Shown: in pieces, positions 16,734 to 48,118 of the stretch
Layout: the number at the start of each line of letters is the position of its first letter
Numbering within the stretch: the stretch's first letter is position 1
Origin: an archaeon
Lineage (GTDB): Archaea; Nanobdellota; Nanobdellia; Pacearchaeales; GW2011-AR1
Reading direction: 5' to 3'
Length of the DNA stretch: 64,000 nucleotides
NCBI GenBank assembly: GCA_027343665.1
Contig: DAHWKL010000002.1
Span: forward strand, 235,386-299,385
Program-made: the position numbers and the translations under genes
Notes under the pieces: model-generated
What the model was told of the DNA's origin: nothing
Database searches by the model: none
What the model saw: only the letters and a program-made list of their open reading frames with translations

Positions 16734-19022
16734 TCATTCCTTGAACTTCTTTATTTCATTATTTAACCATTTCTGCCACTTTGGAAAAACCTGATCCCCC
16801 AACGGGAGCCCGACTTCATTTATGACCTCATCTGAAATCCTGTGAAAAGCATGATTTGAAAGGACATTGAACTTTGCCTCAAGTATCTCTTCTTTACCTG
16901 AAGATTTGGCAACTTTCACTATTTCATTTTTTATCTTTGACCTCAGAAGAATATTATCATATACTGCATCCCAATTTCCAGCCCAGCCTTTCACTTTTGA
17001 AGCAATATCTTTTATGACATCGCTTTCACCATTGATGAGAGCGTCGCTTGCTTCAAGCTCATCTTTCTCGACAATATATTTCATGAGATCACTGAATCCG
17101 CCTTCTTTTTGCGGATCTTCTTTCCAATGTTTTTTTACTTCTGAAACCTGAAGAAGTCTTCTCCATGAATGGAGCCCATCAGCTGATTTTATGGGATTTG
17201 CAACTGCGATCACATCTGTAGCTTTGAACGAAGTCGCGGGAACTTCAAGATCATTCACGACCCTATCGAAAACTCCGTAAGGTGAAGCGCCGTGTATTGT
17301 TCCGGCGACAACATTAGCTAAGGCTCCCACCCTCATCGCTTCATAAAGGGCTTTCGCCTCGACTGAACGAACTTCGCCAACAATCAGCGAACTGTCTCCA
17401 AGACGCAAAGATGTTCTTATCCCATCGTCAGCCGACACTTCCGCTCCGGATTTCAAAAGAGCAGAACGTACTTTCATCCTTAAGATATCATAATTCAATG
17501 CGCGCAGCGCCTCTACAGGAAGTTCAAGTGAATCCTCTACCGTGATTATTCTCGAATTTGGATTTATCTCAAGCATGAGGCTACCTAAAAGGGAAGTCTT
17601 TCCTGAGCTTCTTGTCCCGGCAATTAATATTGTTCTTGCTCCATCTATAAGAAAACTCAAAAGACCTGCAGCCAGGGGATTCAGCATCTTATTTTCAATG
17701 AATAAAGGAAGAGTCCAGGGAGATTCCCTGTGCCTTCTTATCGAATATGCGAGACCCTCCGGACTGAGAGGCTCCTGAATGATAGCAATCCTTGCTCTTA
17801 AATTGTCTATCTCAAGTTGCGTATCAAGTATCGGATTTGCCTCATCCAAAGGTCTTCCTGAAATCATTCTGAACTTTGCGGCCCATGAATCGGCATCTTC
17901 ACGGCTTGGAAGGATATTTGTCGTGCATTCATCATAATCCTGGTGCCTGACATAAATTGGAGTTTGGGAGATCGGAGCATTGAGGGAAACATCCTGAATA
18001 TTTTTGTCTTTGAGCAAAACTTCGACAAGCCCGAAACCGATTGTATGCCTTACGAGTATCGCTGAGAGTTTCATGAGATTTATGTAATCCAACTTTATGT
18101 TTTTCGTCTGAGCAAGATCCCTTATCAAATCTTTTGATATGTTGAAAAAGACTTTCCTTGTCCTGTCAACATTCGTGAACTCTTCTGCTTTAGGCTGATG
18201 TTCTATCAGCACAACTCTGGCAAGGTTCAGAAGGGAATTTTCTTCTTCAGTGAGTGTCGATTCCGGAGGAGAAAGATGGTAAAAAAGTTTTGATTCATCT
18301 TTTTTCTTAAGGATAGCAACATTACTTATATCAAAATCATCTGTCGAAATTTCGTACTGGTCAACTATCTCAGCGTCCGTCGGGAATCCTCCAACAAGTC
18401 TCGTGAAAGTGAAATTGGGAATTATATCCGGTTGAAAGATCTTTGAGTACACCCCCCTTCCCCCAAGCGTGTAGTTGGAAAGGTAAGGCAATGAGTCCCT
18501 TATTACTTTCATGTTTTCAACAAAGCCAAATATTCTCTCAAGAAGTTTCAGGTAATTTCCCTCATCTATCTTAGATTCTCCATTAAGCCTCTGAAAAATT
18601 ACCCTTTCATTGATCATAATCCTTCTGAGCTCATAATAAGAAGCTACGGGATCTTTTTTGAACATATAAAGGAATGAAAAAAGATTATTGTATCTCTTGG
18701 GGAAAAAAGACTCATCAAAAGTTACGAGCTTTTTGTGTGAGAGTACCTCTTCCTGTTTCAGGAAAAAAACATAAAGGCTGGCAATTTCAAGAAGATAATT
18801 TGTCTCCTTGAATCCGTAATTGTAATTTTTCTCGGTCACAAAAACAATCCTAGAGACATTTGGATTTTCAATTAGGGCATCAACCGTCATTTCCATGACT
18901 TCAGGAAAGTCGGCAATGCTTGGAGGGTATGAAGAACCATTAAAATTGAAGTAAAGGATATCTTCACCACCTTCCCTTTTGACTTCATGTGCATAAAGCT
19001 TAGCCTCTTTTTCAAATTCCAT
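16734..19022 (-). CDS. type II/IV secretion ATPase (PilB/TadA/FlaI-like)
   Basis: Walker A AGTRSSGKTS, IITVEDSLELP, LRLGDSSLIVGEVRSVEA, AGTIHGASPYGVFDRVV. Confidence 0.95.
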   Translation of the reverse strand: MEFEKEAKLYAHEVKREGGEDILYFNFNGSSYPPSIADFPEVMEMTVDALIENPNVSRIVFVTEKNYNYGFKETNYLLEIASLYVFFLKQEEVLSHKKLVTFDESFFPKRYNNLFSFLYMFKKDPVASYYELRRIMINERVIFQRLNGESKIDEGNYLKLLERIFGFVENMKVIRDSLPYLSNYTLGGRGVYSKIFQPDIIPNFTFTRLVGGFPTDAEIVDQYEISTDDFDISNVAILKKKDESKLFYHLSPPESTLTEEENSLLNLARVVLIEHQPKAEEFTNVDRTRKVFFNISKDLIRDLAQTKNIKLDYINLMKLSAILVRHTIGFGLVEVLLKDKNIQDVSLNAPISQTPIYVRHQDYDECTTNILPSREDADSWAAKFRMISGRPLDEANPILDTQLEIDNLRARIAIIQEPLSPEGLAYSIRRHRESPWTLPLFIENKMLNPLAAGLLSFLIDGARTILIAGTRSSGKTSLLGSLMLEINPNSRIITVEDSLELPVEALRALNYDILRMKVRSALLKSGAEVSADDGIRTSLRLGDSSLIVGEVRSVEAKALYEAMRVGALANVVAGTIHGASPYGVFDRVVNDLEVPATSFKATDVIAVANPIKSADGLHSWRRLLQVSEVKKHWKEDPQKEGGFSDLMKYIVEKDELEASDALINGESDVIKDIASKVKGWAGNWDAVYDNILLRSKIKNEIVKVAKSSGKEEILEAKFNVLSNHAFHRISDEVINEVGLPLGDQVFPKWQKWLNNEIKKFKE

Positions 19023-26993: not shown

Positions 26994-27665
26994 ATGTACG
27001 ACATTTTCTCAAAACCGGAAAAAGAGAAGAAAAAAATTTCTCATCAACCGACTGAAATTATAGAAGTCGACTTCAGAGAGAAAAATTCATCCGTTCCTAT
27101 TGAGCTAAAAAACCTCGGCCTTGATGTGAAATTCAAGGAGCTTAAAGTCGCTGATTATATTGTGAAAGGCATAGCAGTAGAGAGAAAAGAAGCAAAAGAT
27201 TTTTTCTCTTCCATTTTTGACAGGAGACTCTTTTCCCAGATGGAAGAAATAAATCAATATAACAGGAGGCTTCTGATAATAGAGGGAGATGTCAAAAGAT
27301 ACAATAGGATGAATGAAAATGCACTTCGCGGAATTTTGCTTTCAATATCCCTCAGTTTCAAAGTACCAGTTATATTTTCAAAAGATGAGAAGGAGACTGC
27401 AGATTACATAAGACTTATAGCAAACAAGAAGAAAAGTGAAGAAACAATAAATCCGAAAAAAAGAAACCTCTCACCTTCAGAGGAACTGGAGTTTATAATC
27501 GAGTCATTCCCTGGAGTAGGACCTGCAAAAGCAAAAAAGCTATTAGAAAAATTTGGAACAATCTGGGATATTATAAATTCAAAAGAAGACGAACTTTTGC
27601 CCATTCTTGGGAAAAATTCTGCGAGTTTTATCTCGTTGGCAAAAAGAAAATACGAACCTAAATGA
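26994..27665 (+). CDS. XPF/ERCC4-type nuclease with HhH (Hef nuclease half)
   Basis: EVDFREKNS, VERKEAKDFFSSIFDRRLFSQ, C-terminal FPGVGPAKAKKLLEKFG. Confidence 0.93.
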   Translation: MYDIFSKPEKEKKKISHQPTEIIEVDFREKNSSVPIELKNLGLDVKFKELKVADYIVKGIAVERKEAKDFFSSIFDRRLFSQMEEINQYNRRLLIIEGDVKRYNRMNENALRGILLSISLSFKVPVIFSKDEKETADYIRLIANKKKSEETINPKKRNLSPSEELEFIIESFPGVGPAKAKKLLEKFGTIWDIINSKEDELLPILGKNSASFISLAKRKYEPK

Positions 27666-28179
27666 GAGGATAACCTTCAATCTCTTCGTACAAAGGACCT
27701 TTTGGGGTTAAAGTAGATTTCATAAGACAAAATTTATCCACTTTGAAGCTGATCTTTTCGAGTTCAATTCTGCTAAGATATTCAAAAAACGTACTTTTAT
27801 CTATCACCCGCTTCACTCTTGCGACAGTCAAATGCCCCATGAACCTTTTTTCCTTCCGAAAAATTCCTGCAAGAGATTCATCAATACTTTTTTGCAATTC
27901 CTCGACCCCTTTTATCTCAAGCCAGATTATTCTCGGAAAAGATTTGGAAAATGCCCCGATTGAGTTGATACTTGCATGAAAAGATTTTCCTTTTATTTTT
28001 TTAAGCTGGGTTTTAATTTCCCCCATTCTCTCACCATCAATCTCCCCCAGAAACTTCAAGGTTAGATGCAAGTTCTCCCTTTCAGTCAATTTACCATCAA
28101 ATTTCGGAAGTTTTTCCTGAATATCAAATATTTCTTTTTTGATTCTCTCGGGCAGACTTATTGAAATAAAACACCTCAT
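27658..28179 (-). CDS. thpR: RNA 2',3'-cyclic phosphodiesterase (2'-5' RNA ligase family)
   Basis: MRCFISISLPERIKKEI; HLTLKFLGEI and HLTVARVK (two HxT motifs). Confidence 0.93.
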   Translation of the reverse strand: MRCFISISLPERIKKEIFDIQEKLPKFDGKLTERENLHLTLKFLGEIDGERMGEIKTQLKKIKGKSFHASINSIGAFSKSFPRIIWLEIKGVEELQKSIDESLAGIFRKEKRFMGHLTVARVKRVIDKSTFFEYLSRIELEKISFKVDKFCLMKSTLTPKGPLYEEIEGYPLI

Positions 28180-29396
28180 TAGTCCTCCGGAACAAGTGCA
28201 AAAAAGCTGTAATTATTAGCAGCTTCTGAGGCAAGATTCTTAACTTGATCGAGATTCACAGCTTTTATCTTTTCCCTGAAGTCATAGAATTCGTTCGCAT
28301 CACCAGAGCATTCACTGTAAAGAAGATTTGCCATCTGAATCTGAGAATCTTCAGTGGATATTTCATAATTTCCGGCAAGCTGCTCTTTAACACTTTCAAG
28401 CTCTTTCTCTTCAAGATTCTGAGATACTTTCTGAAGTTCTGCAATAATAAGTTCTTTAACTTTATCGACACCATCTTTTGTAGTTCCGACATAGATAAGC
28501 GAATAAGCATAATCTTTTCCGATGCTTGAATCACCTGCAATTGAATAAGCAAGATTTCTTTTTTCCCTTATTTCTATAAACAAACGGGATGACATTCCTT
28601 CGGCAAGGATACCTCGAAGAACAACAGAAGCATAGGCATTCTTCTCATGAATCAAAGGTGAATGAAATGCAAAAACAAGATTTGCCTGGTCTATCCCTTT
28701 CCTTTTCTCTATTTTTATCTCATTCCTTCTCCTTACTTCAAAATGAGGGACTTCACCTTTCTCATCACCGAAACTTCTCTCAATTATACCCTTAAGTTTC
28801 TGGAACTCAAAATTTCCAACAACACATGCAATTATATTGTCAGGCGTGTAGACTTTCCTGAACTTCTCAACCATTTTTTCCCTGTTTATTGAACGCATGG
28901 TTTCTTCATCCCCAATCAGATTTTTCCCAAAAGGGGGCTCATAGAGAGAAAATTGTATGCTATCAAGCACATATTGCCTTGGCGTGTCGCGTCTCATCTT
29001 CATTTCCTCAAATATGACTTCCCTCTCTTTCTCTATCTCTTCAGGGGAAAAAAGAGGATTTTTTACCATATCTATTAATACTTCCATCCCTCTCTCTGCA
29101 TGTTCACTTGGAATCTTGCACCAGAAAGCTGTAAGAGTCTCATCCGTGAATCCATTGAGGACTCCTCCGCTTTTTTCTATATCTTCTGCTATCATCAAGG
29201 CACTTCTTGTCGGAGTCCCTTTATACAAAAGATGCTCTATGAAATGAGATATCCCTTTTTCCTCGGAAGATTCATTTATCCCCCCATTCCTTACTGCAAG
29301 CCCCATACTCACAACAGGAAGATCCCTCTTTTCAAAAAGGAGGGTCATACCATTAGGAAGAACTTCGCGCCTGAAATTATTTTTTAAATTCATCAA
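28179..29396 (-). CDS. M16 family zinc peptidase
   Basis: LPNGMTLLFEKRDLPVVSMGLAVRNGGINE...GISHFIEHLLYKGT (HxxEH), TDETLTAFWCKIPSEHAERG. Confidence 0.93.
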   Translation of the reverse strand: MMNLKNNFRREVLPNGMTLLFEKRDLPVVSMGLAVRNGGINESSEEKGISHFIEHLLYKGTPTRSALMIAEDIEKSGGVLNGFTDETLTAFWCKIPSEHAERGMEVLIDMVKNPLFSPEEIEKEREVIFEEMKMRRDTPRQYVLDSIQFSLYEPPFGKNLIGDEETMRSINREKMVEKFRKVYTPDNIIACVVGNFEFQKLKGIIERSFGDEKGEVPHFEVRRRNEIKIEKRKGIDQANLVFAFHSPLIHEKNAYASVVLRGILAEGMSSRLFIEIREKRNLAYSIAGDSSIGKDYAYSLIYVGTTKDGVDKVKELIIAELQKVSQNLEEKELESVKEQLAGNYEISTEDSQIQMANLLYSECSGDANEFYDFREKIKAVNLDQVKNLASEAANNYSFFALVPED

Positions 29397-29428: not shown

Positions 29429-29710
29429 TTAATAGATAAGCCAGATATAAAGGGCTATAAGAAGAAATAAGACTGCCCCGCCAACAATAAATTTGAATAT
29501 GAGGTCTTTCTTGGATTCTTTTTTTTCCTCTTCTTTTCTTATTTCCCTTCCTTCAACTTCCTGATACTCAAATGCCTTTTGACGTTCAAGATTCTTTTTT
29601 TCAAAATCACTCATCTCTCTCTTTTCGTCAAAAGCTGATTTGCTGTCAGCTTTAGCATTATCTTCCGGAAGGGTCAGATCTTCCGCATTAATTTCTTCAG
29701 TCATGAACAA
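29429..29710 (-). CDS. hypothetical single-TM protein
   Basis: 93 aa; acidic N-terminus, C-terminal TM (FIVGGAVLFLLIALYIWLIY). Confidence 0.6.
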   Translation of the reverse strand: MFMTEEINAEDLTLPEDNAKADSKSAFDEKREMSDFEKKNLERQKAFEYQEVEGREIRKEEEKKESKKDLIFKFIVGGAVLFLLIALYIWLIY

Positions 29711-29726: not shown

Positions 29727-30530
29727 TTATAAATCTTTTTTTGAGAATATCAAGTATTCTTCATTACCCAATTCAAAACTATTTATTAAATTAAAATTTG
29801 AATTTATGAACTTCTTTATCCATGTCCTGTCGGCAAAGAACTTCTTTCTTTTCATCATGCTTCTTGTGGCAAAACTCACGGCAACACGATCAACAAGAGG
29901 TGTGATTTCATCCAAAAATTTTTTGGAATAATCGTGTTTGATCATCTCTAGACTGTCAATGACCTTAAAAAGGAAAGCTACCTTTACTCCTTTGTCCTCT
30001 TTGATTATTCTTTTTATTTTTTCGATGTCAAAAAGGCTCTCGTGCAGGAATGATGCTTTTTTTTGCTTTTCTTTTTCAAAGAATTTTTCCTGAGTCTCCA
30101 CAATCTGACCAACTGCTTCAACACCTTTATAATTGGCTTCAAAACCTGCTCTCTTAAAATAAGGGTAACTAAATCCGTTCGTTCCGCACCCAAGATCGTA
30201 TATATTCACCTTTTCTGGAAGACCTTCAAGAATTTTTTTGTAAATTTGACCATAATAAGGAATCCTTTCCCTTGTTGAAAGGTGTTTATTAAGAAACCAT
30301 TCAGTATTTTTATCCTTAAAATTAAGGAGCTTTTGCGATAGGAAAGCTGTATAAACTTTCCTCAATAGGTCTCTTGTCAGTTTTACTTTTTCTTCATCTG
30401 TAAGATTGCCTTTGTCAAATTGCCTGAACGCAAGAAGAACATCCTCTTCTGGCAATTGGGAGAATTCTTTTTTTGAAGTTATTTTCCTTAGGAGTTCATT
30501 TTTTCCTACTGGCATATCTGTTTCCATCAA
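29727..30530 (-). CDS. 16S rRNA m7G(1405)-type methyltransferase family protein (ArmA/Rmt/FmrO-like)
   Basis: HLSTRERIPYYGQIYKKIL, IYDLGCGTNGFSYPYF, VKVAFLFKVIDSLEMIK, VDRVAVSFATRSMMKRKKFFADRTWIKKF, FELGNEEYLIFSKK, plus a matching N-terminal helical domain. Confidence 0.82.
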   Translation of the reverse strand: MMETDMPVGKNELLRKITSKKEFSQLPEEDVLLAFRQFDKGNLTDEEKVKLTRDLLRKVYTAFLSQKLLNFKDKNTEWFLNKHLSTRERIPYYGQIYKKILEGLPEKVNIYDLGCGTNGFSYPYFKRAGFEANYKGVEAVGQIVETQEKFFEKEKQKKASFLHESLFDIEKIKRIIKEDKGVKVAFLFKVIDSLEMIKHDYSKKFLDEITPLVDRVAVSFATRSMMKRKKFFADRTWIKKFINSNFNLINSFELGNEEYLIFSKKDL

Positions 30531-31035
30531 TATAAAACCTCAGGGGAATGTTTAAATCTTTCTTCACCCCGACACGAAAACTTTTCTTTATTTTTAAGAC
30601 GCGCTTTGCATCTTCTATCCATAGACCTTTTACTTTCGAAATTGTGACTCCATTAAGTTTTCTCTCTATATGAATCTCTTTTGTAAGGAGCCCAGGACCG
30701 GAACATCTTCCTTCAAAGTTCAGCGGTTCAAGCGCTCTTATTAGAACAGCCTCGGCTTTTCCGGCAGGGCCTGTCACAAAATTCAGCATCAGGTGTTTGT
30801 GCACATTTTTTATTAATATTGTCCCTGCACAAAGCCACATCGCAAAATTATCCTTCCTTCTTCCTAAGCGCGCCCAGCTTGCAGGATCATTTTCATCGAA
30901 ATAAGATTCATCTTCCACGATCCTCGCTCGAAAGATTTTCTTTCCAGTACGATGAACAATAATTTTCCCAATCAGATCTCGGGCCACAATATCTGCCGGA
31001 CGATTGAAAAATTTCTGAGTCAACCTCTTAGCCAT
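30496..31035 (-). CDS. 3-methyladenine DNA glycosylase (AAG/MPG family)
   Basis: FFNRPADIVARDLIGKIIVH...ARIVEDESYFDENDPASWARLGRR...AVLIRALEPL...CSGPGLLTKEI. Confidence 0.9.
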   Translation of the reverse strand: MAKRLTQKFFNRPADIVARDLIGKIIVHRTGKKIFRARIVEDESYFDENDPASWARLGRRKDNFAMWLCAGTILIKNVHKHLMLNFVTGPAGKAEAVLIRALEPLNFEGRCSGPGLLTKEIHIERKLNGVTISKVKGLWIEDAKRVLKIKKSFRVGVKKDLNIPLRFYIDGNRYASRKK

Positions 31036-31068
31036 CAGACTTATAAAATTCACAAAATTAAAAACATT

Positions 31069-31989
31069 ATGCCAATAAATGTTAATGATCCGGAGTACAC
31101 AAGGGCCGAAAAAGATTACTTCGACGCAAAAACCGCAGAAGATAGGCTCGAAGCCTTAGGCAGGATGATTTCTCATGCACCAAAACATAAGGGTGCGGAA
31201 AATCTCCGCCAGCAGCTCACGCAAAGGAGAAAAAGGCTTGAAGAAGATCTTGAGAAAAAAAGAAAAAAAGGTAAAAGTTCAAAAGATGGGATAAAAAAAG
31301 GAGATATGCAGGCTTTGCTAATCGGCAAAACAAACTCCGGAAAATCCTCTCTTATGAGAACTTTGACAAACACAAACCAGAAAATCTCTTCAGTTCCATT
31401 CACAACAAAAGAACCTGTTGTGGGTGTGATGGAATACGAGGGTTCTCCAATTCAGATAGTAGAGATACCTGCAATAGGAAGTGAAAATTTTGAAAGGGGA
31501 TTGGTGCACACGACAGATTTGGTTATAATCATCATTGAAAAGATAGAAGATATTGATTATATAAAAGAAAAGTTGCCTCCGCATAATGGAAAAGAAATAA
31601 TTGTTGTAAACAAATCCGATCTCATGACTCCTGAGATAAAAAGAAAGATATCAGCAAGGCTTCAAAGTAAAAGATATAATTTTGTTCTTGTTTCTTCCTT
31701 CTCCTATTCAAAAGATAATGGAATTGAAGAACTCAAAAGAAAGATATTCAACTCTTTCGAAGTATTGAGAATATTCACAAAAGAGCCCGGAAGTGAAAAA
31801 AAAGAGAAACCCATGATTCTAAGGCCAGATTCTTCCGTAAGAGACGCTGCAGAAAAGATATTCAAAGGCTTTTCAAAAAGGATTGTTGAGGTTAGGATAT
31901 GGGGACCATCATCCAAGTTCGGAGGACAGGTTGTTGGTTTAAATCATAAATTGAAAGATCTGGATACTGTGGAGTTTAAGACAAAATAA
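31069..31989 (+). CDS. OBG/DRG-like GTPase with C-terminal TGS domain
   Basis: LLIGKTNSGKSSLMRTLTNTNQKISSVPFTTKEPVVGVMEYEGSPIQIVEIPAI; NKSD; TGS-like C-terminus; ATG at 31069 preferred over the upstream extension. Confidence 0.9.
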   Translation: MPINVNDPEYTRAEKDYFDAKTAEDRLEALGRMISHAPKHKGAENLRQQLTQRRKRLEEDLEKKRKKGKSSKDGIKKGDMQALLIGKTNSGKSSLMRTLTNTNQKISSVPFTTKEPVVGVMEYEGSPIQIVEIPAIGSENFERGLVHTTDLVIIIIEKIEDIDYIKEKLPPHNGKEIIVVNKSDLMTPEIKRKISARLQSKRYNFVLVSSFSYSKDNGIEELKRKIFNSFEVLRIFTKEPGSEKKEKPMILRPDSSVRDAAEKIFKGFSKRIVEVRIWGPSSKFGGQVVGLNHKLKDLDTVEFKTK

Positions 31990-32536: not shown

Positions 32537-33667
32537 CTATCTTGTAATCAACAATTTATCCATTCTTTCTTTGAGTTTTTTTATTTCCGGTTTGGCAAAA
32601 TGTTCTCTTGCAGGTTCCATTATCTCGACAAGTTTGTCTGCCATCGCAGATTTAAAATCCATTGGATGAAGTTTTTTCTCCTTGAAATCTGACAGAAGCT
32701 CTCCATAAGATTTATAATTTTTATTGCCGCCGAACTTTTCCGGTCTTTTGACTTCTAAAGAAGATTTATCATTTATGAAAACAAGATATTTCGCCCAGTC
32801 AAGGAGTGGGTTGAAATCGACTTCTCCTTCGGGACAGAAAGCTCCGCTTATCTTTTTTCTGACTTCTTCCTCGCTATCTGTCATGTATATTGCAGAGCTT
32901 GGAATTGACTTTGACATTTTCATCTCACCCCATAATTCCTGGATCTTGCCCTTTGGGACAGGCCAGACAGTCGGCTTCTGCAGACCTAGTATAAGATGGC
33001 CATGGACGGCAACAGGTTTTATTGGATTTCCTTTTGAATCCTTGAGAGGATTTTTCAATTTCAAAGCGACATCTCTTGCGATTACTTGGGCTTTCCTCTG
33101 GTCATTTCCTGCATGTGCAAGGTTTATTTTCTGATTAAAAATGTCTGCAACCTGCATTGGAGGATAAATAAGCTTTGCAAAATCTATTGCTTCACCTTCT
33201 TTTCTTCCCATTATTGTTGTAGACCTTTGTATTCTTCCAAGGGTCGTATTTTTGCTCACATCAATCACAGTTTCCCAGTAAGAATCATTATTGTGGTAAA
33301 GTTCAGAACCTAAAACAAATTTCAAATCCTTTGGATCTCCTCCCACACATTTGTAAGCTGCAATAAGAGCTTCCTTAAAAAAAGGAACTCCAACTTCATG
33401 AATTATTTTCATATCTCCGCCCAATTTGTCGTTTATCCATGAATGCCAGTCCGCAAGGAAGATTGAACAATCAACACCTGCATCAACAAAATCTTTTATC
33501 TTTGACATGCAAACAAGGCCATGGCCAAGATGGGGTTTACCTGAAATCTCAAACCCTATATAATGATATAATTTTTCTCCATCTTTAAGGAATTTTATAA
33601 GGTCCTCCTCAGTTAAAATCTCTTCTGTGTTCCTTTTTATAAGATCAAGCCTTTTCTTCCAGTCCAT
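32537..33667 (-). CDS. tyrS: tyrosyl-tRNA synthetase
   Basis: Class I: GFEISGKPHLGHGL, KMSKSIP; YHNNDSYWETV; archaeal-type size (376 aa). Confidence 0.93.
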   Translation of the reverse strand: MDWKKRLDLIKRNTEEILTEEDLIKFLKDGEKLYHYIGFEISGKPHLGHGLVCMSKIKDFVDAGVDCSIFLADWHSWINDKLGGDMKIIHEVGVPFFKEALIAAYKCVGGDPKDLKFVLGSELYHNNDSYWETVIDVSKNTTLGRIQRSTTIMGRKEGEAIDFAKLIYPPMQVADIFNQKINLAHAGNDQRKAQVIARDVALKLKNPLKDSKGNPIKPVAVHGHLILGLQKPTVWPVPKGKIQELWGEMKMSKSIPSSAIYMTDSEEEVRKKISGAFCPEGEVDFNPLLDWAKYLVFINDKSSLEVKRPEKFGGNKNYKSYGELLSDFKEKKLHPMDFKSAMADKLVEIMEPAREHFAKPEIKKLKERMDKLLITR

Positions 33668-36609: not shown

Positions 36610-39600
36610 TTAATCCAACTCGACATAGATATCTCCCGACGATGAAATAAATTTATAATCCCTCAATTTTGCGGGAACTCTTACTTCGTAATCATAAATT
36701 CCATAGGTGCCTTTAGTATGAGGATGTATTTTTGAGGCAAAGACAAGATCTTCTTTATCGGCAATATCAAATTGACCGTCGTGGGAGATATCATCTGAGG
36801 AATCCCAAAGGATCCCTGTTGTGAAATTAGAATTATTTATTGAATCTATTACCGGAACATTATTTATTGATGTGTTGTAAATCAAAAAGCTCGTCGTATT
36901 TTTAGGAACCCCTGCGTTTGTGTAAAGATTATAAACTGAATCATTGAACCCGGTCATGTTAAGAAGGGTATCTATATTGGAGAAATCATTTGGTGAAGCA
37001 ACTGCACCAGAAGTTGTCCTTCCTATTGCAACCAAAGAGGGCCAGGAAACTGAAGCGCCTGAACTGGTTATGAATATATTCCCTCCAGAAAAAAGATTTG
37101 CAGGCCAGCTGATTAGTTTTGCATCAAGATTGTTTGAAAGGCTGTAATTACTTATGGGATTTATGAATCCGTAAAGGTATTGCCAGCTCCCGACGGTGAT
37201 GTTTTTGCTCCATTGATTGTTGCTCTCATTCCACTCTGTATAAGCATTCGAAGGATCAGCAACAGCATAGATGGAGCTTGTTCCTATCTGTGCGACCCAT
37301 TTGTAAAAACTTACATTAGAGCTGAATTTTGATATTGAGATACTTTTAGTCCCGATAAGAGTCCCTCCTGAAATTGGATTCCCGTCATAAACTTTTATTA
37401 CCACGCTTTTTATATCTGCCCCGCCACGGTTATAAGTCGTAACATTTATACCGACAGGATCTCCCTCACCCGGAGAAGTCACATTGAACTTTATACTGCT
37501 TGCATTTATGACAAAATCGGGATAGGTAAAATTGAAATGATAAGTAGCACTGGAATTGGAATTTCCGACTTGATCCGTACAGGTGGCATTCCATCCATGA
37601 TACCCCTGAGACAATGAAACCGGCTTTGTTGCAGGTATCCCGCTAGAGACAAGCATATTAGACACCTTAACAGCACCATCGACATAAACATTGCAGGTTA
37701 TAAAAGGATCATAAGGATCCCTTGCCGTCCAATTGAGTATTACACTTCCAGTTCCATAATAAACCCCGGAATTATTTGGGGGATAATTAAGAGAAATTAT
37801 CGGAGAAGTCTGATCAACAGTGAAATCAAAAGGTGCAGGTTTTCCTGAATTTCCGTCGGGATCCGTACAATTTACCGTCCAGTTATGGAATCCTTGATGT
37901 ATTCCCGAAACGGAAAATGAGTTCTGCTGATTATTTAATATCGAACTACTTGACTGATTGAACACCCCATCAATGTAAAGACTGCACTGAGATATTCCAA
38001 AAACATCATCCGGGGTATAATAAAAATTGATATTAGAATATTTTGTGATATTATTGTTCGGAGGAGAATTTAAGGTGATTCTTGGGACTCCTTGGACTGT
38101 GAAGTTTATCGTTGAAGTTGTGAAAGTATTGCCAGCAGGATCATTGCATGTTACACTCCATGTATGATTTCCATTATGAACTGCATCATATTTTATTGTA
38201 TAAGTTCCATTTTGTGCTGGGAAATTCTCAAATTGAGGAAATCCATCTAATGTAAGATTGCAATTAAGTGAAGTTGCAAGGTTATCTCTTGCGCTAAAAT
38301 TGAAGGTTACATTATTCCAAGTAAGAACACTGGTACCGTTTGGAGAATAAAGATTGACTGTTGGGGGGTGCGTATCAATAGTGAAATAACTATCATTAGT
38401 CTTTGTTGAAAGCCCTAGTGCATTAGTGGCTTTAACGCTCCAATTGTAATGTCCGTCAGATAAACTTGTAAGTGTGAAATTGTTTATTGCATTATTAACC
38501 AAAGGTGTCTGGTTTATTTTGTTGAAAATATCATTAAGATACAATGTCGAATTAACAAGGCTGTTTGTCACGTCTGAAACGTTGTAAGACAAAAGCACGT
38601 TGGAAGAATTGAGCCACTTATTGTTTGCAGGACTTGTCAGATTGACTGTTGGCGGGAAAGAAAGTTTGAAATATCCAAGACTACTTGTGTTCTCATTATT
38701 TGCCCAATCCCAGCAAGTTACATACCAGTATTCATCTCCTCCCGAAGAGAAATGAATTGTCTTTGTCACATTAAATCCGCTTGAAGCTGAGAAATTCGAT
38801 AAGAGGTTAACACTATTTACGCTAAGATTACAATAAAGGGTCGGATCAAAACTGTCTGAAACCTTAAAGGTAAAATTTACATCCTCTGTAGTTAGTGCAG
38901 AACCATAAGTGGGACGATAAAGTGTAATAGATGGAGGAAAAAGATCGATCCCAAATCTTCTGGTTGACGTCTGTGCACTGACACTTGCGGTATCTGTACA
39001 TTTAACATACCAGTTGTAATATCCTTGTGAAAATCCGGAAAGAGTGAAATTATTGACGCCATTAGGAGGATTGCTCTTTGATTGGTTAAGATTGCCATTT
39101 ATATAAAGGCTGCATGTTGCAAGGCCGGTGGTGCTTGTGGCATTATAAAACAGAACAGGAGATGATGTATTAAAATAAGTATTATTCGCAGTCAAAAGAG
39201 AAACTTTAGGTTTTGCACTTATATTTATATTTCTTAACTGGCTGTATCCGACATTTCCAGCTCCATCCATACATTGGACAAACCATTGTGTGAACCCGTT
39301 CTGAAGCCCCGTTTCGAGCCGGTTTGTAAGAACACCTGAATTTACAGAAAAATTCAGATCAACATGGCTTCCAACAGTAAGATTACATAAAAGTTTTGAA
39401 TAGATATTATCTGTTGCTGTGAAATTAAAATTTATACTTGACGTGCTGAACTGGGAATTATTTGCCGGAAGATTCAAACTCACTGTGGGGGGAGTTTTAT
39501 CGACAATGAATGTCCTTTTAACAGCTGTCCCATTCAATCCAAATACATTTGTTGCATTGACAGTCCAAGTATAATAACCATTGGCAAGATTTGTCAAAGT

Positions 39601-42600
39601 GAAATTGTTTAGACCCTGTACAAGATGGCTCTGATTTGATTTGTTAACAGCACCATTAAGAATAAGTTTAGAAGAGATTATTCCGCTTCCTGTCAGATTA
39701 TAAAGAAGAGTTATGTTTCCAGTATTTGTTGAAGTCATATTGGATGTAATCAGCTTCACAACAGGAGAAGTTGAAAGGATTGTAAAAAATCTTGTTGCAC
39801 TTGTGTTGGTGTTTCCGGCAAGATCCGTACAAACTACGTTCCAATAATAATTGCCTTCACTCAACCCAGTTAAATTAACACTTGCAACATTAAAAGGTCC
39901 GCTCTTTTCACTTCCGGTAGTGTATGTCGGAGTCACAGATGAATATTTTCTAACAATTAAATTATCCCACCACGTTGTGTAAGCTGCTCCTCCTGCATCC
40001 CCCACAAGACCAATATATCCCCCGTTATTTGTAAATGTGTAAGCACCACCGCAGGAAATTCCATTAATGTAACTCTGAGCTGTCGTGGAGCCTAAGTTAA
40101 TTTGAATATTATACCAAGTACTTGCTGTGAGATGAGCACATGATGAAGGGGCACTCCATGAAGTCCATGAAGTTGCAGATGCAATTCCTGCACTCTGACC
40201 AGTTCTTGTCTCAGTTCTGAACATCTGACCTGCACCTGCCGAGTTTGTAAGGAAGAAAAAATTACCAAGATAATTCGACATTGAATCAAACATTATTGTT
40301 TCGTTCGGTTTCAAATTCACATTCTTGTACATATAATCACCACTCTGAGAAACCGCATAATAGCTTGGGATAGGGTTTCCTGTCGTTGCTGTCTGTCCCG
40401 CAGATCCGACAATCGTCCAGCTTGAAACACTTGATCCACTGTCGAAATAATCAAATGTCGCTGTCCCATTTGAATAAACGGAAGCCGATGGATTCCCATA
40501 ATAAAGGTAGATTGAATATCCTGTAGGACTCAGAATCTTATCCAACTTTACCCATGCTGTCATATTGTGCCCCGAAACTGAACAACTTTGAACCCAATAA
40601 GGCAGCGTCGAATTTTGGTATGAATTCACAAACCTTATCCTGGAAGAATTAGAATTGACACACTCGCTTGACCAACTGAAATCAGATCCGACATTGCTTG
40701 AGTTTAAAATTATCTTTGTCTGATATCCTGCAGGTGTTGATCCTGAAGGGACAGAGAGATTGAATTGCTCCCTGTATTTCCATGATCCGTTCCACCATGT
40801 TCCAATCCCAGGAGACCCAAGAGTTCCGTTATCCACATTGAAAGAACTCCCTTTCTTGACACCATTTAAGTAAAGTGAACAAGTCATCGTCGGAGCAAGA
40901 TTATCTGTGGATACAAAATTGAAATTAACATCGCTCGAGTAAAGATTTGAATTATTTGATGGCGATGAAAGAGATATTAAGGGTTTCTGGGTATCCACAA
41001 TAAAAGTTCTCTGGGAACTGCTTCCCTTAAGATTTGTTGTATCTGTAACATTTACACTCCAATTATAATAACCCTGTGAAAGTCCTGAAAGAGTGAAATT
41101 GTTCGTTACTGCATTTCTTAATGGCGTTTGATTTGTAAGGTCAACGAGTCCATTTAATATCAAAGTAGAATTCGCAAGATTATTATTTGCATCTGATGGA
41201 ATATAATAAAGAGTAGGGCTAGTCGTGTTAAACCATGTATTATCTGGTGTGACCAGACTTGCAGTCGGCGCTTCTGCTCCCTGAACAATTCCAACTTTTC
41301 TTGTTGTTGATCCTATATCGCTTGAATGATCAGAGATCACCATACATCTAAGATTATTTATCGAAGCTATATTTCCTTTGAGAGTGAAATTCGTTGAAGT
41401 TGTCCCTGCACCAAGATTTCCAAGATTATGCGGGTTTGTTTGTCCTGAGTTCAAGATGATATTCCCTGAAGATCCGACACTTATCCAATCAGCGGAGGAT
41501 AAGTTATACTGAACATATGCTCTCGTGTTATAACATGTTCCGATACTGCAATTCACCTGGCAAGTCACATTGAATGTTGTGCCTACATTAACATTGTAAA
41601 GATCACTCTTTGGATAAATGAGGTCTGTGGTTATGTTCCCTATTGTATTGAAAGAAGTGAATTGTAAATCTGAAAGATCGAGGTTATCCCAGTAATGTGT
41701 AACTGCAATTGAAGATCCTCCTGCATTATAAGCATCAATGACAAGTTTTATCTGGTCTCCGGGAATCAGATAAACTGATGATGGGTTATTACAACTCCCC
41801 GTCCATGTGGTTTTTGTCGTCGAGGTTATCCTTGTTCCGCCTGTGCCGTCATTTCCTGACTGGCATATGAGATAATCTCCTGTTGAATTTGAGATATAAG
41901 CTTTCCAAGTTAGATAGATTGAATTAATAGTACTTGCCTGAACAACAGCACTGAATGAAATTGTGCCTGATCCAAGAAGTGCGCCATTGTTTCCCATATA
42001 AGGTGAAACCGCACTGACAAGCTTGTATAATGAGCCTGAAGGAACAGAAACAGCAACGTTATTTTCAGTCGCATCCCTCGAATTACTAAGATTTATGTTT
42101 GCTGTCGAGGCATAATTTGAACCTGAGGTCTCATAGAAAATTGGAAGGAAAGTAAGATTAGGAACACTCACATTCACTGTCCTCGTCTGAGTCTGATTTA
42201 GGTTTCCGGCAAAATCATAACAATTGACAGACCAGTTATGGACTCCAGGTGAAAGATACCTGTTGACTTTTGTGGGAACCCCCTGGATCATTGAATAATT
42301 TGTATAAGAATTTGCCCCATCTATGAAAAGCGAACAGTTTGCCAGGCGGTTATTGTCTGTCGCATTGAATACAAAGTTAACACCATAATTCGAAGTGATA
42401 TGACTGTTGTTTGCAGGGCTTATCAGGTTAACATGGGGCGGAATTGTGTCTGCAGCTATTGTTATCTTCTTTGTCGTCGTGCCTGTTGCGTTTGAATAAT
42501 CGGAAGAAGCGATGCATCTTATATTGCTCACTGAGCTTGCACCAATAAGTCTAAATATTGTGGAGTTCCCGATGGTTCCGACATTTCCGAGCGAATGGCC

Positions 42601-45600
42601 ATTTGTTTCTCCTGATGAAAGGACGATATTTCCCGAACTTCCTATATTTGTCCAGCCTAAAACAGAAGTGTTATACTGGATATATGCATGAGCATTCGTG
42701 CATATTCCAATACTGCAATTTAGAGAACATGTCGCATTGAATTCCTGACCAGAAGAGATATCTTGATTTACAACTGGCTGGGTTAGATCAACATTTAGAT
42801 TTCCCAGAGAACTAAAACCCACTACATTCACATAAGAATTGTCTGTACTATCCCAATAATGTGTAAGCCTCATTGTCTGGCCTCCTCCAAAACGTCCATA
42901 GTTGTATGCATCAAGAACCAACTTAAGCTGATCGCTTGGTTTCAGGTGAATCTGGGAAGAAGTCGTACAGCTCCCAGTCCATGTGGATTTTGTTGTCGAA
43001 GAGACAGCTGTTCCGCCAGTGTTGTCATTCCCCGACTGGCATACAAGATAATTTCCGGTATTATTTGAAACATAAAGTTTCCATGTCAAGTACGCTTCAG
43101 CTCTGAAACTCGAGACATTTGCCTGCGCGACAGCGCTGAATGAAATTGTTCCCGCAGGGATAACAGCTCCATTGTTCCCCATATAGGGAGAAGTTGCATT
43201 GACAATATTAGACAAACTGTTTCCGTTTATTGATATTGCGGCATTGTTTTCGGTTCCATCACGAGTAGTGTTAAGATATATATTTGCGGGAACAACATAA
43301 TTTGAAGTCCCTGTTTCATACCATAATGAAGAGAAACTCAACCCACTATTTATGACATTTACTTTTCTCGTGCCTGTTTGATTGAAATTCCCTGAAAGAT
43401 CATAACATTTGACGCTCCATGTGTGAGATCCCGGAGAGACATAGGTCTGGAAACTCGTGTTTGCTCCCTGCACAATAGAAGTATTTGTATAAATTTTACT
43501 TGAGTCAAGAGTGAGAGTGCAGTTTTTTACATAATTATTATCAGTTGCCTTGAATATGAATTTAACGCCATAATCTGAGCTCACATTACTGTTATTAGCA
43601 GGGGAAATTAAGGTCACATTTGGAGGAGTGGTATCAACTAGAGTGCTTATTTTTCTCATTATTGGACTTATTGAACTTGAGCCATAAGAAGTTGCATAAC
43701 ATCTGACATTGCTCGATGAACTTGCTGCTGTTAGAGAAAAATTCGTGCTTGAACCCGATGTAGTAGTTGTTCCAAGAGAATGCCCGTTTGTTTCTCCGCT
43801 GGCAAGGATAATATTTCCGGAATGACTTACATTAGACCAAAGAAGACCATAAGCTTGAAGCGTCTGAACAGAACCCACCGAATAAAAAGTTGAAGAGTTT
43901 AATTCATTTCTGTAAGTTGCATTTATCCATGCTGAACTTCGCGCAACATTTGAGATTGTAAGCTCATCTATCTGTCCTGTATAAAACTGATTCCACGCGG
44001 CATGATGCCCTATTTGAGTTCCCGACAATCCTGTAAGTGGCGAAGTTGGAGTTCCTGCCTGATTAGAATAGACTTTTGAGGAGTTTTTTCCATCGATGTA
44101 GATTGCAAAATTTGAAGCCGTCAGAGTCTGACCAGAGGTCGAATTAAAAACACCCGTAATATAATGCCAAGCCCCATTATTGACAGTCATGGAAGAATTT
44201 CCGCCAACACCTCTCCATATCGCATTGGAATCGACACCGACTGCCGGAACACCAGAGATGGCACCAGTACATCCGCTGCTTCCGCAGCTGGGATCTATAG
44301 CAAGGGTTATACTAAGACCTGCGCCGCTTCCCCTGTCCTGAACAACCACTCCTGATGCAGAAGTTGTTTTCACCCAAGCAGAGATTGTATATTGTGTTAC
44401 AGAACTTTGAAGATAAGTTGTATTAAGGTAGCTTGCTCCGTTGAAATTATCAGCTCCGTCAATTTTACCGCTTGTGCCAGAGATGCTTCCGACACTTGTT
44501 GCATTGTGACTTCCGAGAGAATCAAGAGCATTTATTTGGTTCATATGATAAACTGTTTTATATCCATTGCTCCAGACTGAAGAAGGATTTGCATGACTTG
44601 AAGAACCTGAATTATTGTAATACATCCAGATATAATTATTTGAAGATGCAGAAAGATTCATCTTCACCCAAGCAACAAGATATGCTTTAGAAGAAGTGTA
44701 AGATTTGTTAAAATATTCTATCTCATAAGGCAGAAGATGAGCTTGTGAATCTGTGAAGAGGATATCATTCCCGTTTGAAAGCGCATAGTTATGCAAATCA
44801 GAGTCCGTTATATTTATTAAAACTGGGAAATTCACAAGATTTTGGGTGACTTTACCGGAAGGAATTGTTATTAACTTTCTCCTTCCCCAATTAGAATTGT
44901 ACCATGAGGAATTTGTTCCTGTACTATACTGCGCATATACAAGAGTTCCGGGACACTGTCCGGTTGTGCAATTAACACTGCAGGTTATGTTAAAATTGGT
45001 TCCTGAGTTGAATGTCTTATCACTTCTTGGATAAGTTAAGTTTGTCAATATAGAGCCTACTGGGTATATTCCGCCACCAAAGCTAACATAAGAATTGTCT
45101 GTGCTGTCCCAATAATGTGTAAGCCTCATTGTCTGGCCTCCTCCAAAACGTCCATAGTTGTATGCATCAAGAACGAGTTTGATCTTGCTTGTAGCTCCAA
45201 TATATCTTGAAGAAGTTGTACAACTCCCTGTCCAGGTGGATTTTGTCGTCGAAGAGACAGCTGTCCCGCCAGTATTGTCATTCCCCGACTGGCATATGAG
45301 ATAATCTCCTGTTGAATTCGTAACGTAAAGTTTCCATGTCAGATATGCCTCAGCTCTGAAACTTGAAACATTCGCCTGCGCGACAGCGCTGAAAGATATA
45401 GTTCCGGCGCCGATAATTAATCCGCCTCCACCTGCGAAAGCAGATGTGGCATTGACAATATTAGAAAGCCTGTTTCCGCTTATTGATATTGCAGCATTGT
45501 TTTCTGTCACATCTCTTGTCTTATTCAAAAGTATATTTGCGGGAGAAACATAATTTGAAGTCCCCGTTTCATAAAGAGGAGAAGCAATATAATTTGATGA

Positions 45601-47979: not shown

Positions 47980-48118
47980 CTTCACCAATTTCCTTATCAA
48001 GAAGTTTTATAGCCTCCTCGACTATATGAGATTTATTTCTAAACTTTCCTTTTTTTGAGAGTTTATCCAGAATATTTATTGTCTTTTTATCAAAAGTAAA
48101 ACTCGCTCTTTCTTTCAT
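47972..48118 (-). CDS. 48-aa ribbon-helix-helix (CopG/Arc-like) protein (not in ORF track)
   Basis: MKERASFTFDKKTINILDKLSKKGKFRNKSHIVEEAIKLLDKEIGEDE; SD-like GAGGTGAT at 48121-48128; stop overlaps the ATG of the giant gene. Confidence 0.75.
   Translation of the reverse strand: MKERASFTFDKKTINILDKLSKKGKFRNKSHIVEEAIKLLDKEIGEDE

What the first reader, a model, noticed from the sequence alone, without database searches (positions are those of the whole stretch)
29727..30530. Archaeal homolog of the ArmA/Rmt/FmrO 16S rRNA m7G1405 aminoglycoside-resistance methyltransferases
The protein carries the family's ordered motifs: an N-terminal helical domain, HxSTxER(I/V), (D)LGCG with N, VAFLFKxxxxLE, V(A/V)SFxxxS, and a GNE(L/E)xY end. 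This family is known from aminoglycoside-producing actinomycetes and as acquired resistance in bacteria. Here it sits in what looks like a chromosomal archaeal context with no mobile element nearby. It may be an ancestral or native decoding-site modification enzyme, or an environmental reservoir of the fold.
Basis: partly seen in the sequence, partly recalled or inferred. Interest (0 to 1): 0.82.

Follow-up and report, generated by a model that had tools for sequence, protein, structure and literature searches.

The report
Native archaeal Rmt-type rRNA methyltransferase
A tiny uncultured archaeon carries, as an ordinary inherited chromosomal gene, a relative of the enzymes that make bacteria resistant to aminoglycoside antibiotics by methylating the ribosome; about half of its phylum has one, but what it methylates in archaea has never been tested and cannot be the textbook site in some of them.

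Summary
The minus-strand ORF at 29727-30530 (266-267 aa) belongs to the FmrO/Rmt family of 16S rRNA m7G1405 methyltransferases: Pfam FmrO is above its cut-off, all 45 aligned relatives match the NCBIfam Rmt model, and the 16 best PDB matches to a high-confidence model are all Rmt enzymes. It is native. It lies in a gene block conserved in most of 43 Pacearchaeota-type loci, and the family is found in 173 of 371 genomes of the phylum. No phage record matched; plasmid matches were only the distant resistance genes. Archaeal members are not new: a 2013 paper reported the enzyme in two Nanoarchaeota, though as absent from all other archaea. New here are the phylum-wide spread, a distinct 'type P' branch with altered pocket residues, and a caution about the target. 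All 32 type-P genomes with a readable site keep G1405. Six genomes with a relative of the other (W) type encode A1405 instead (compensatory U1496 verified in all six), so G1405 cannot be the target there. Best reading: a housekeeping decoding-site methyltransferase, most likely making m7G1405 in this organism; the target is unproven. An apparent link between the enzyme and a rare C1400-to-U change vanished on wider sampling.

The parts
29727..30530 (-). FmrO/Rmt-family 16S rRNA methyltransferase, type P; likely start ATG at 30527 (266 aa); N-terminal helical domain about residues 8-100, Rossmann domain 107-264
30496..31053 (-). methylpurine-DNA glycosylase (MPG), upstream on the same strand, overlapping the methyltransferase start; its own start is uncertain
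   Evidence: PF02245 E=4.8e-38; upstream of the enzyme in several relatives
29429..29710 (-). 93-aa protein with a C-terminal hydrophobic stretch, downstream neighbour in close relatives
28179..29396 (-). M16 peptidase, downstream on the same strand in 37 of 43 type-P loci
27658..28179 (-). LigT/ThpR-like 2',3'-cyclic phosphodiesterase, part of the conserved block
26994..27665 (+). ERCC4-type nuclease, part of the conserved block
30952..31989 (+). GTPase with TGS domain (DRG-like), divergent upstream neighbour in 37 of 43 type-P loci
32537..33667 (-). class I aminoacyl-tRNA synthetase (Trp/Tyr type), part of the conserved block in many relatives

Best explanation
The gene encodes a native, vertically inherited member of the Rmt/FmrO 16S rRNA methyltransferase family. 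Its N-terminal helical domain docks on the assembled small subunit, and its Rossmann domain uses S-adenosylmethionine to methylate a base flipped out of helix 44 of the decoding site. In this organism that base is most likely N7 of G1405 (E. coli numbering), as a constitutive modification and not a response to drugs. Shown here: family membership, fold, native context, and an intact G1405-C1496 pair in the organism's 16S gene. Inferred from the bacterial enzymes: docking, base flipping, N7 chemistry and the G1405 position.
For: PF07091 above cut-off. All 45 aligned relatives match NF000466 and 43 match PF07091. AlphaFold model pLDDT 93.0, pTM 0.90. Its 16 best PDB matches are all Rmt enzymes (RmtC, Sgm, RmtB, RmtF, ArmA), E=6e-16 to 1.4e-9, TM up to 0.76/0.83, full length for all but ArmA (chain of 196 residues); the first other enzyme is at 1.5e-7 with TMq 0.46. 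Residues shared by bacterial, W-type and type-P rows: L56, L80, S85, E88, R89, D112, G116, N118, K189, F220, E257. Conserved gene order in 43 type-P loci. 114 of 155 genomes of the GTDB family have a match at E<1e-20. The 16S gene has G1405 and C1496, and G1405 is kept in all 32 type-P genomes with a readable site.
Against: No activity, modification or resistance data exist for any archaeal member in the papers found. Pocket differences: Pro/Thr of the bacterial K-x-x-P motif is Asp192 in nearly all archaeal rows; type P has Gly119 for Pro, Ser165 for Asp, Met196 where RmtC has Arg211, and no Met at the RmtC Met245 position. Six genomes with a W-type relative have A1405. G1405 is nearly universal, so keeping it is weak evidence. 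The NCBIfam equivalog cut-off is missed by a wide margin.
Confidence: 0.58

Rival explanations
1. The archaeal branch is an Rmt-fold enzyme with a shifted target: it still acts on the small subunit near helix 44, but on a nucleotide other than G1405.
For: A1405-U1496 replaces G1405-C1496 in G033, G052, G108, G248, G400 and G465, all with a W-type enzyme. A1405 is not depleted among genomes with the enzyme: 4 of 9 A1405 genomes against 94 of 178 G1405 genomes have it, Fisher p=0.74. Asp192 in the pocket is archaea-specific.
Against: All six A1405 cases have the W type; none was found with type P. The enzyme could be a leftover or have shifted only there. Only 9 to 12 A1405 genomes are available, and a binning error cannot be wholly excluded, although both genes lie mostly on contigs over 15 kb.
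Confidence: 0.27
2. It is an antibiotic self-protection or environmental resistance gene that was acquired, with aminoglycoside resistance as its selected function.
For: The family's characterised members confer high-level resistance to 4,6-linked aminoglycosides (PMC12340973; PMC12406665).
Against: Conserved gene block and vertical spread; no mobile element in the neighbourhood; no phage match and only distant plasmid matches; no drug biosynthesis genes beside it.
Confidence: 0.06
3. It acts on another RNA altogether (tRNA or 23S rRNA), for example as an archaeal tRNA m7G enzyme; the gene for archaeal tRNA m7G49 was unassigned in 2018.
For: Archaeal tRNA m7G exists without an assigned enzyme (PMC6320965).
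Against: The N-terminal domain of the 30S-binding Rmt enzymes is present, and R53, equivalent to RmtC R50, is nearly invariant. m7G49 is known from Thermoplasma, a different archaeal group.
Confidence: 0.07

Closest known systems
RmtC 16S rRNA (guanine(1405)-N(7))-methyltransferase (PDB 6pqb, 6cn0, 8ghu)
   Same: Best sequence and fold match over the whole length including the N-terminal domain; shared H-x-S-T-x-E-R, D-x-G-C-x-x-N, F-K, S-F and G-N-E motifs
   Different: 22-24% identity; Asp192 for RmtC Thr207 (Pro in the other bacterial rows), Met196 for RmtC Arg211, Gly119 for Pro141; archaeal, chromosomal, conserved gene order instead of a plasmid gene beside transposases
Sgm from an aminoglycoside producer (PDB 3lcu, 3lcv)
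   Same: Same fold, TM 0.71-0.73; STRER motif and GNE end
   Different: 18% identity; a producer's self-protection gene
Nanoarchaeum equitans and Nst1 'rRNA (guanine(1405)-N(7))-methyltransferase' (Podar et al. 2013, PMC3655853)
   Same: Archaeal DPANN member of the same family, called by homology only
   Different: Reported as confined to those two Nanoarchaeota and absent from other archaea; here it is in 173 of 371 genomes of the phylum, with a distinct Pacearchaeota-type branch. The two sequences themselves were not compared.
NpmA/KamB m1A1408 methyltransferases
   Same: Neighbouring target in helix 44, same general fold class
   Different: No sequence match, and not among the 50 best fold matches

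Membership tests
FmrO/Rmt (Pfam PF07091) | Score above the curated Pfam cut-off | tested here: met
   45 bits against 27, E=1.2e-11
Rmt G1405 equivalog (NCBIfam NF000466) | Score above the equivalog cut-off of 250 bits | tested here: not met
   82.8 bits, although E=2.4e-23 over nearly the whole length
FmrO/Rmt | Rmt fold: Rossmann core plus N-terminal helical 30S-binding domain | tested here: met
   Model pLDDT 93.0; the 16 best PDB matches are all Rmt enzymes, full length for all but ArmA
FmrO/Rmt | SAM-site motifs (D-x-G-x-G-x-N; acidic residue after beta 2; motif III Asp) | tested here: inconclusive
   D112, G116, N118 and E138 present; motif III Asp is Ser165 in type P
FmrO/Rmt | RmtC functional residues R50, K204, R211, K236, M245 (residue roles recalled; the source papers were not held) | tested here: inconclusive
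   R53, K189 and R223 kept; R211 is Met196; M245 aligns to K230/F231
m7G1405 methyltransferase | Substrate base present: G1405 in the organism's 16S rRNA | tested here: met
   G1405-C1496 in the own genome and G1405 in 32 of 32 type-P genomes
m7G1405 methyltransferase | Catalysis of m7G at 1405 of 30S, and resistance to 4,6-linked aminoglycosides | not testable with these tools
   Needs an assay; none exists for an archaeal member in the papers found
Acquired aminoglycoside-resistance gene | Mobile context or plasmid carriage | tested here: not met
   Conserved gene block; no phage match and only distant plasmid matches; no recognised transposase nearby

The most novel reading that the evidence does not exclude
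A phylum-wide archaeal branch of the aminoglycoside-resistance methyltransferases is a housekeeping enzyme whose target has moved away from G1405, at least in lineages where A1405 replaced it, with Asp192 as part of a re-shaped target pocket.
Probability: 0.27. Interest if true: 0.7.

Novelty: new variant of a known kind. Interest (0 to 1): 0.5.

Why it matters
If the enzyme makes m7G1405, many DPANN archaea have a built-in form of the best-known aminoglycoside-resistance mark, and the family's normal role would be ribosome maturation and not only drug resistance. If it does not, the family has a second target, which the A1405 genomes make directly testable. Either result bears on where the clinical resistance genes came from. 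The literature found here (2013) treats the archaeal enzyme as confined to two genomes.

Tried and rejected
(1) C1400-to-U linked to the enzyme: striking in 26 relatives (11 of 12 genomes with the enzyme U1400; 12 of 14 without it C1400), but across 371 genomes of the phylum it vanished (29/28 against 69/61, p=0.87). Type P and U1400 do coincide 32 of 32 within the GTDB family, yet a genus with the other type also has U1400, so shared ancestry is the simplest reading. (2) Acquired resistance gene: rejected on gene order and spread. (3) A residue that tracks A1405 against G1405 among W-type enzymes: the R211-equivalent varies in both groups. (4) Rooting the family: the tree is unrooted, with only seven bacterial rows (one a fragment of Sgm) and long branches; bacterial rows group with a divergent second copy of family f35 (100/92), which may be long-branch attraction. 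(5) The single-protein scan of the named genome collection found nothing; the profile scan worked. (6) The RmtC functional papers and the Sgm structure paper were not held.

Full report
What is there. The ORF lies on the minus strand, 29727-30530. It opens with TTG-ATG; the ATG at 30527 has a purine-rich stretch upstream and is the likelier start, giving 266 aa.

Family. Pfam FmrO is passed. The NCBIfam general Rmt model matches residues 11-260 at E=2.4e-23 but at a third of its equivalog cut-off. All 45 members of an alignment of window and named relatives match that model, and 43 match FmrO. RmtC and Sgm are the nearest solved structures by sequence. An AlphaFold model built from the window and 44 relatives has pLDDT 93.0 and pTM 0.90. 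Against the PDB, ranks 1-16 are all Rmt enzymes, over the whole length except for ArmA, whose solved chain is 196 residues; unrelated methyltransferases follow at much lower coverage.

Native gene. In 43 loci of the same type from named Pacearchaeota/Nanoarchaeota assemblies (L025-L067), a divergent DRG-like GTPase lies upstream in 37 and an M16 peptidase downstream in 37; a Trp/Tyr-type synthetase, ThpR, the ERCC4 nuclease and sometimes MPG lie around them (my counts). Ten loci of the other type (L068-L077) share no neighbour. The family occurs in 23 of 55 near relatives, 173 of 371 genomes of the phylum and 123 of 243 good ones, and in none of 14 control genomes, at least three of them archaea. 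With a profile of its own it reaches 124 of 155 genomes of the GTDB family, 114 of them at E<1e-20 (my count from the table), mostly from assemblies under 90% complete. Plasmid matches are only the distant bacterial resistance genes, and phage records give none. No transposase or integrase domain was found in the neighbouring genes scanned.

Two archaeal types. The tree puts type P, the window's kind, on one fully supported branch with a long stem (100/100, length 2.14). The other archaeal rows ('W') and the seven bacterial rows lie outside it. Eleven positions are shared by bacterial, W and P rows, among them S85, E88, R89, D112, N118, K189, F220 and E257. Asp192 replaces the bacterial Pro (Thr in RmtC) in nearly all archaeal rows. 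Gly119 and Ser165 are peculiar to type P, where the other rows have Pro and mostly Asp. RmtC R50 and K204 correspond to R53 and K189, which are kept; R211 corresponds to M196; M245 has no Met counterpart. That these RmtC residues matter is recalled knowledge; the papers were not held.

Target. The organism's 16S gene reads TGCACACACTGCCCGTC: G1405 is present and pairs with C1496, and position 1400 is U instead of the usual C. Among genomes with the enzyme and a readable site, 94 of 98 have G1405 in the phylum sample. For type P it is 32 of 32 (my count; type P taken as E<1e-79 or a split hit of one ORF, leaving out G030, which was itself in the profile). Six genomes with the enzyme instead encode A1405: G033, G052, G108, G248, G400 and G465. 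In all six U1496 replaces C1496, so the pair is kept. The enzymes of G033, G108, G248 and G400 keep the S-x-x-E-R motif and the glycine loop ending in N-P; that of G052 is shorter and more divergent; the G465 protein was not read out, only matched as an open frame of 256 aa without stops. N7 methylation of G1405 is impossible in those genomes. The enzyme may be a relic there, may act elsewhere, or the archaeal branch may have another target in general. The sample is small, and A1405 is neither enriched nor depleted with the enzyme (p=0.74).

What is known. Podar et al. 2013 (PMC3655853) recorded a homolog of a bacterial 16S rRNA methyltransferase in N. equitans and Nst1 and stated that it was in no other archaeal genome. 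No experimental work on an archaeal member was found in four literature searches on this point.

Verdict. Family membership is close to certain and native inheritance is well supported. m7G1405 in this organism is likely but unproven. A target shift in part of the archaeal branch is a live alternative.

Noticed in passing
L024 1615-1631 (-), own 16S rRNA gene (G000:C3): Position 1400 of 16S (E. coli numbering), normally C and placed at the P-site codon-anticodon pair, is U. U1400 is in 57 of the 187 genomes of the phylum sample whose site matched either pattern.
   Followed up: partly
16S of G033 (L130), G052 (L114), G108 (L152), G248 (L151), G400 (L150), G465 (L187), G034 (L189): A1405-U1496 replaces the G1405-C1496 pair of the decoding-site helix in several DPANN lineages; this would remove the 4,6-aminoglycoside methylation site altogether.
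   Followed up: partly
G022 (L133): 16S with U1400 and U1404 in the decoding-site motif (TGCACACACTGCCTGTC).
   Followed up: no
G087, G289, G334 (family f35; L079, L087): Two FmrO-family copies in one genome; the divergent copy groups with the bacterial resistance enzymes in the tree, possibly by long-branch attraction.
   Followed up: no
window 36610-48000 (-): A 3796-aa ORF with Ig-like, DUF2341, laminin-G and CARDB domains, a giant surface protein candidate in a genome of about 0.8 Mb.
   Followed up: no
window 16734-19022 (-): 762-aa protein with a type II/IV secretion ATPase domain.
   Followed up: no
G252:C2:10529-11299, G448:C2:9446-10231: Type-P matches with one in-frame stop each, possible pseudogenes or assembly errors.
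   Followed up: no
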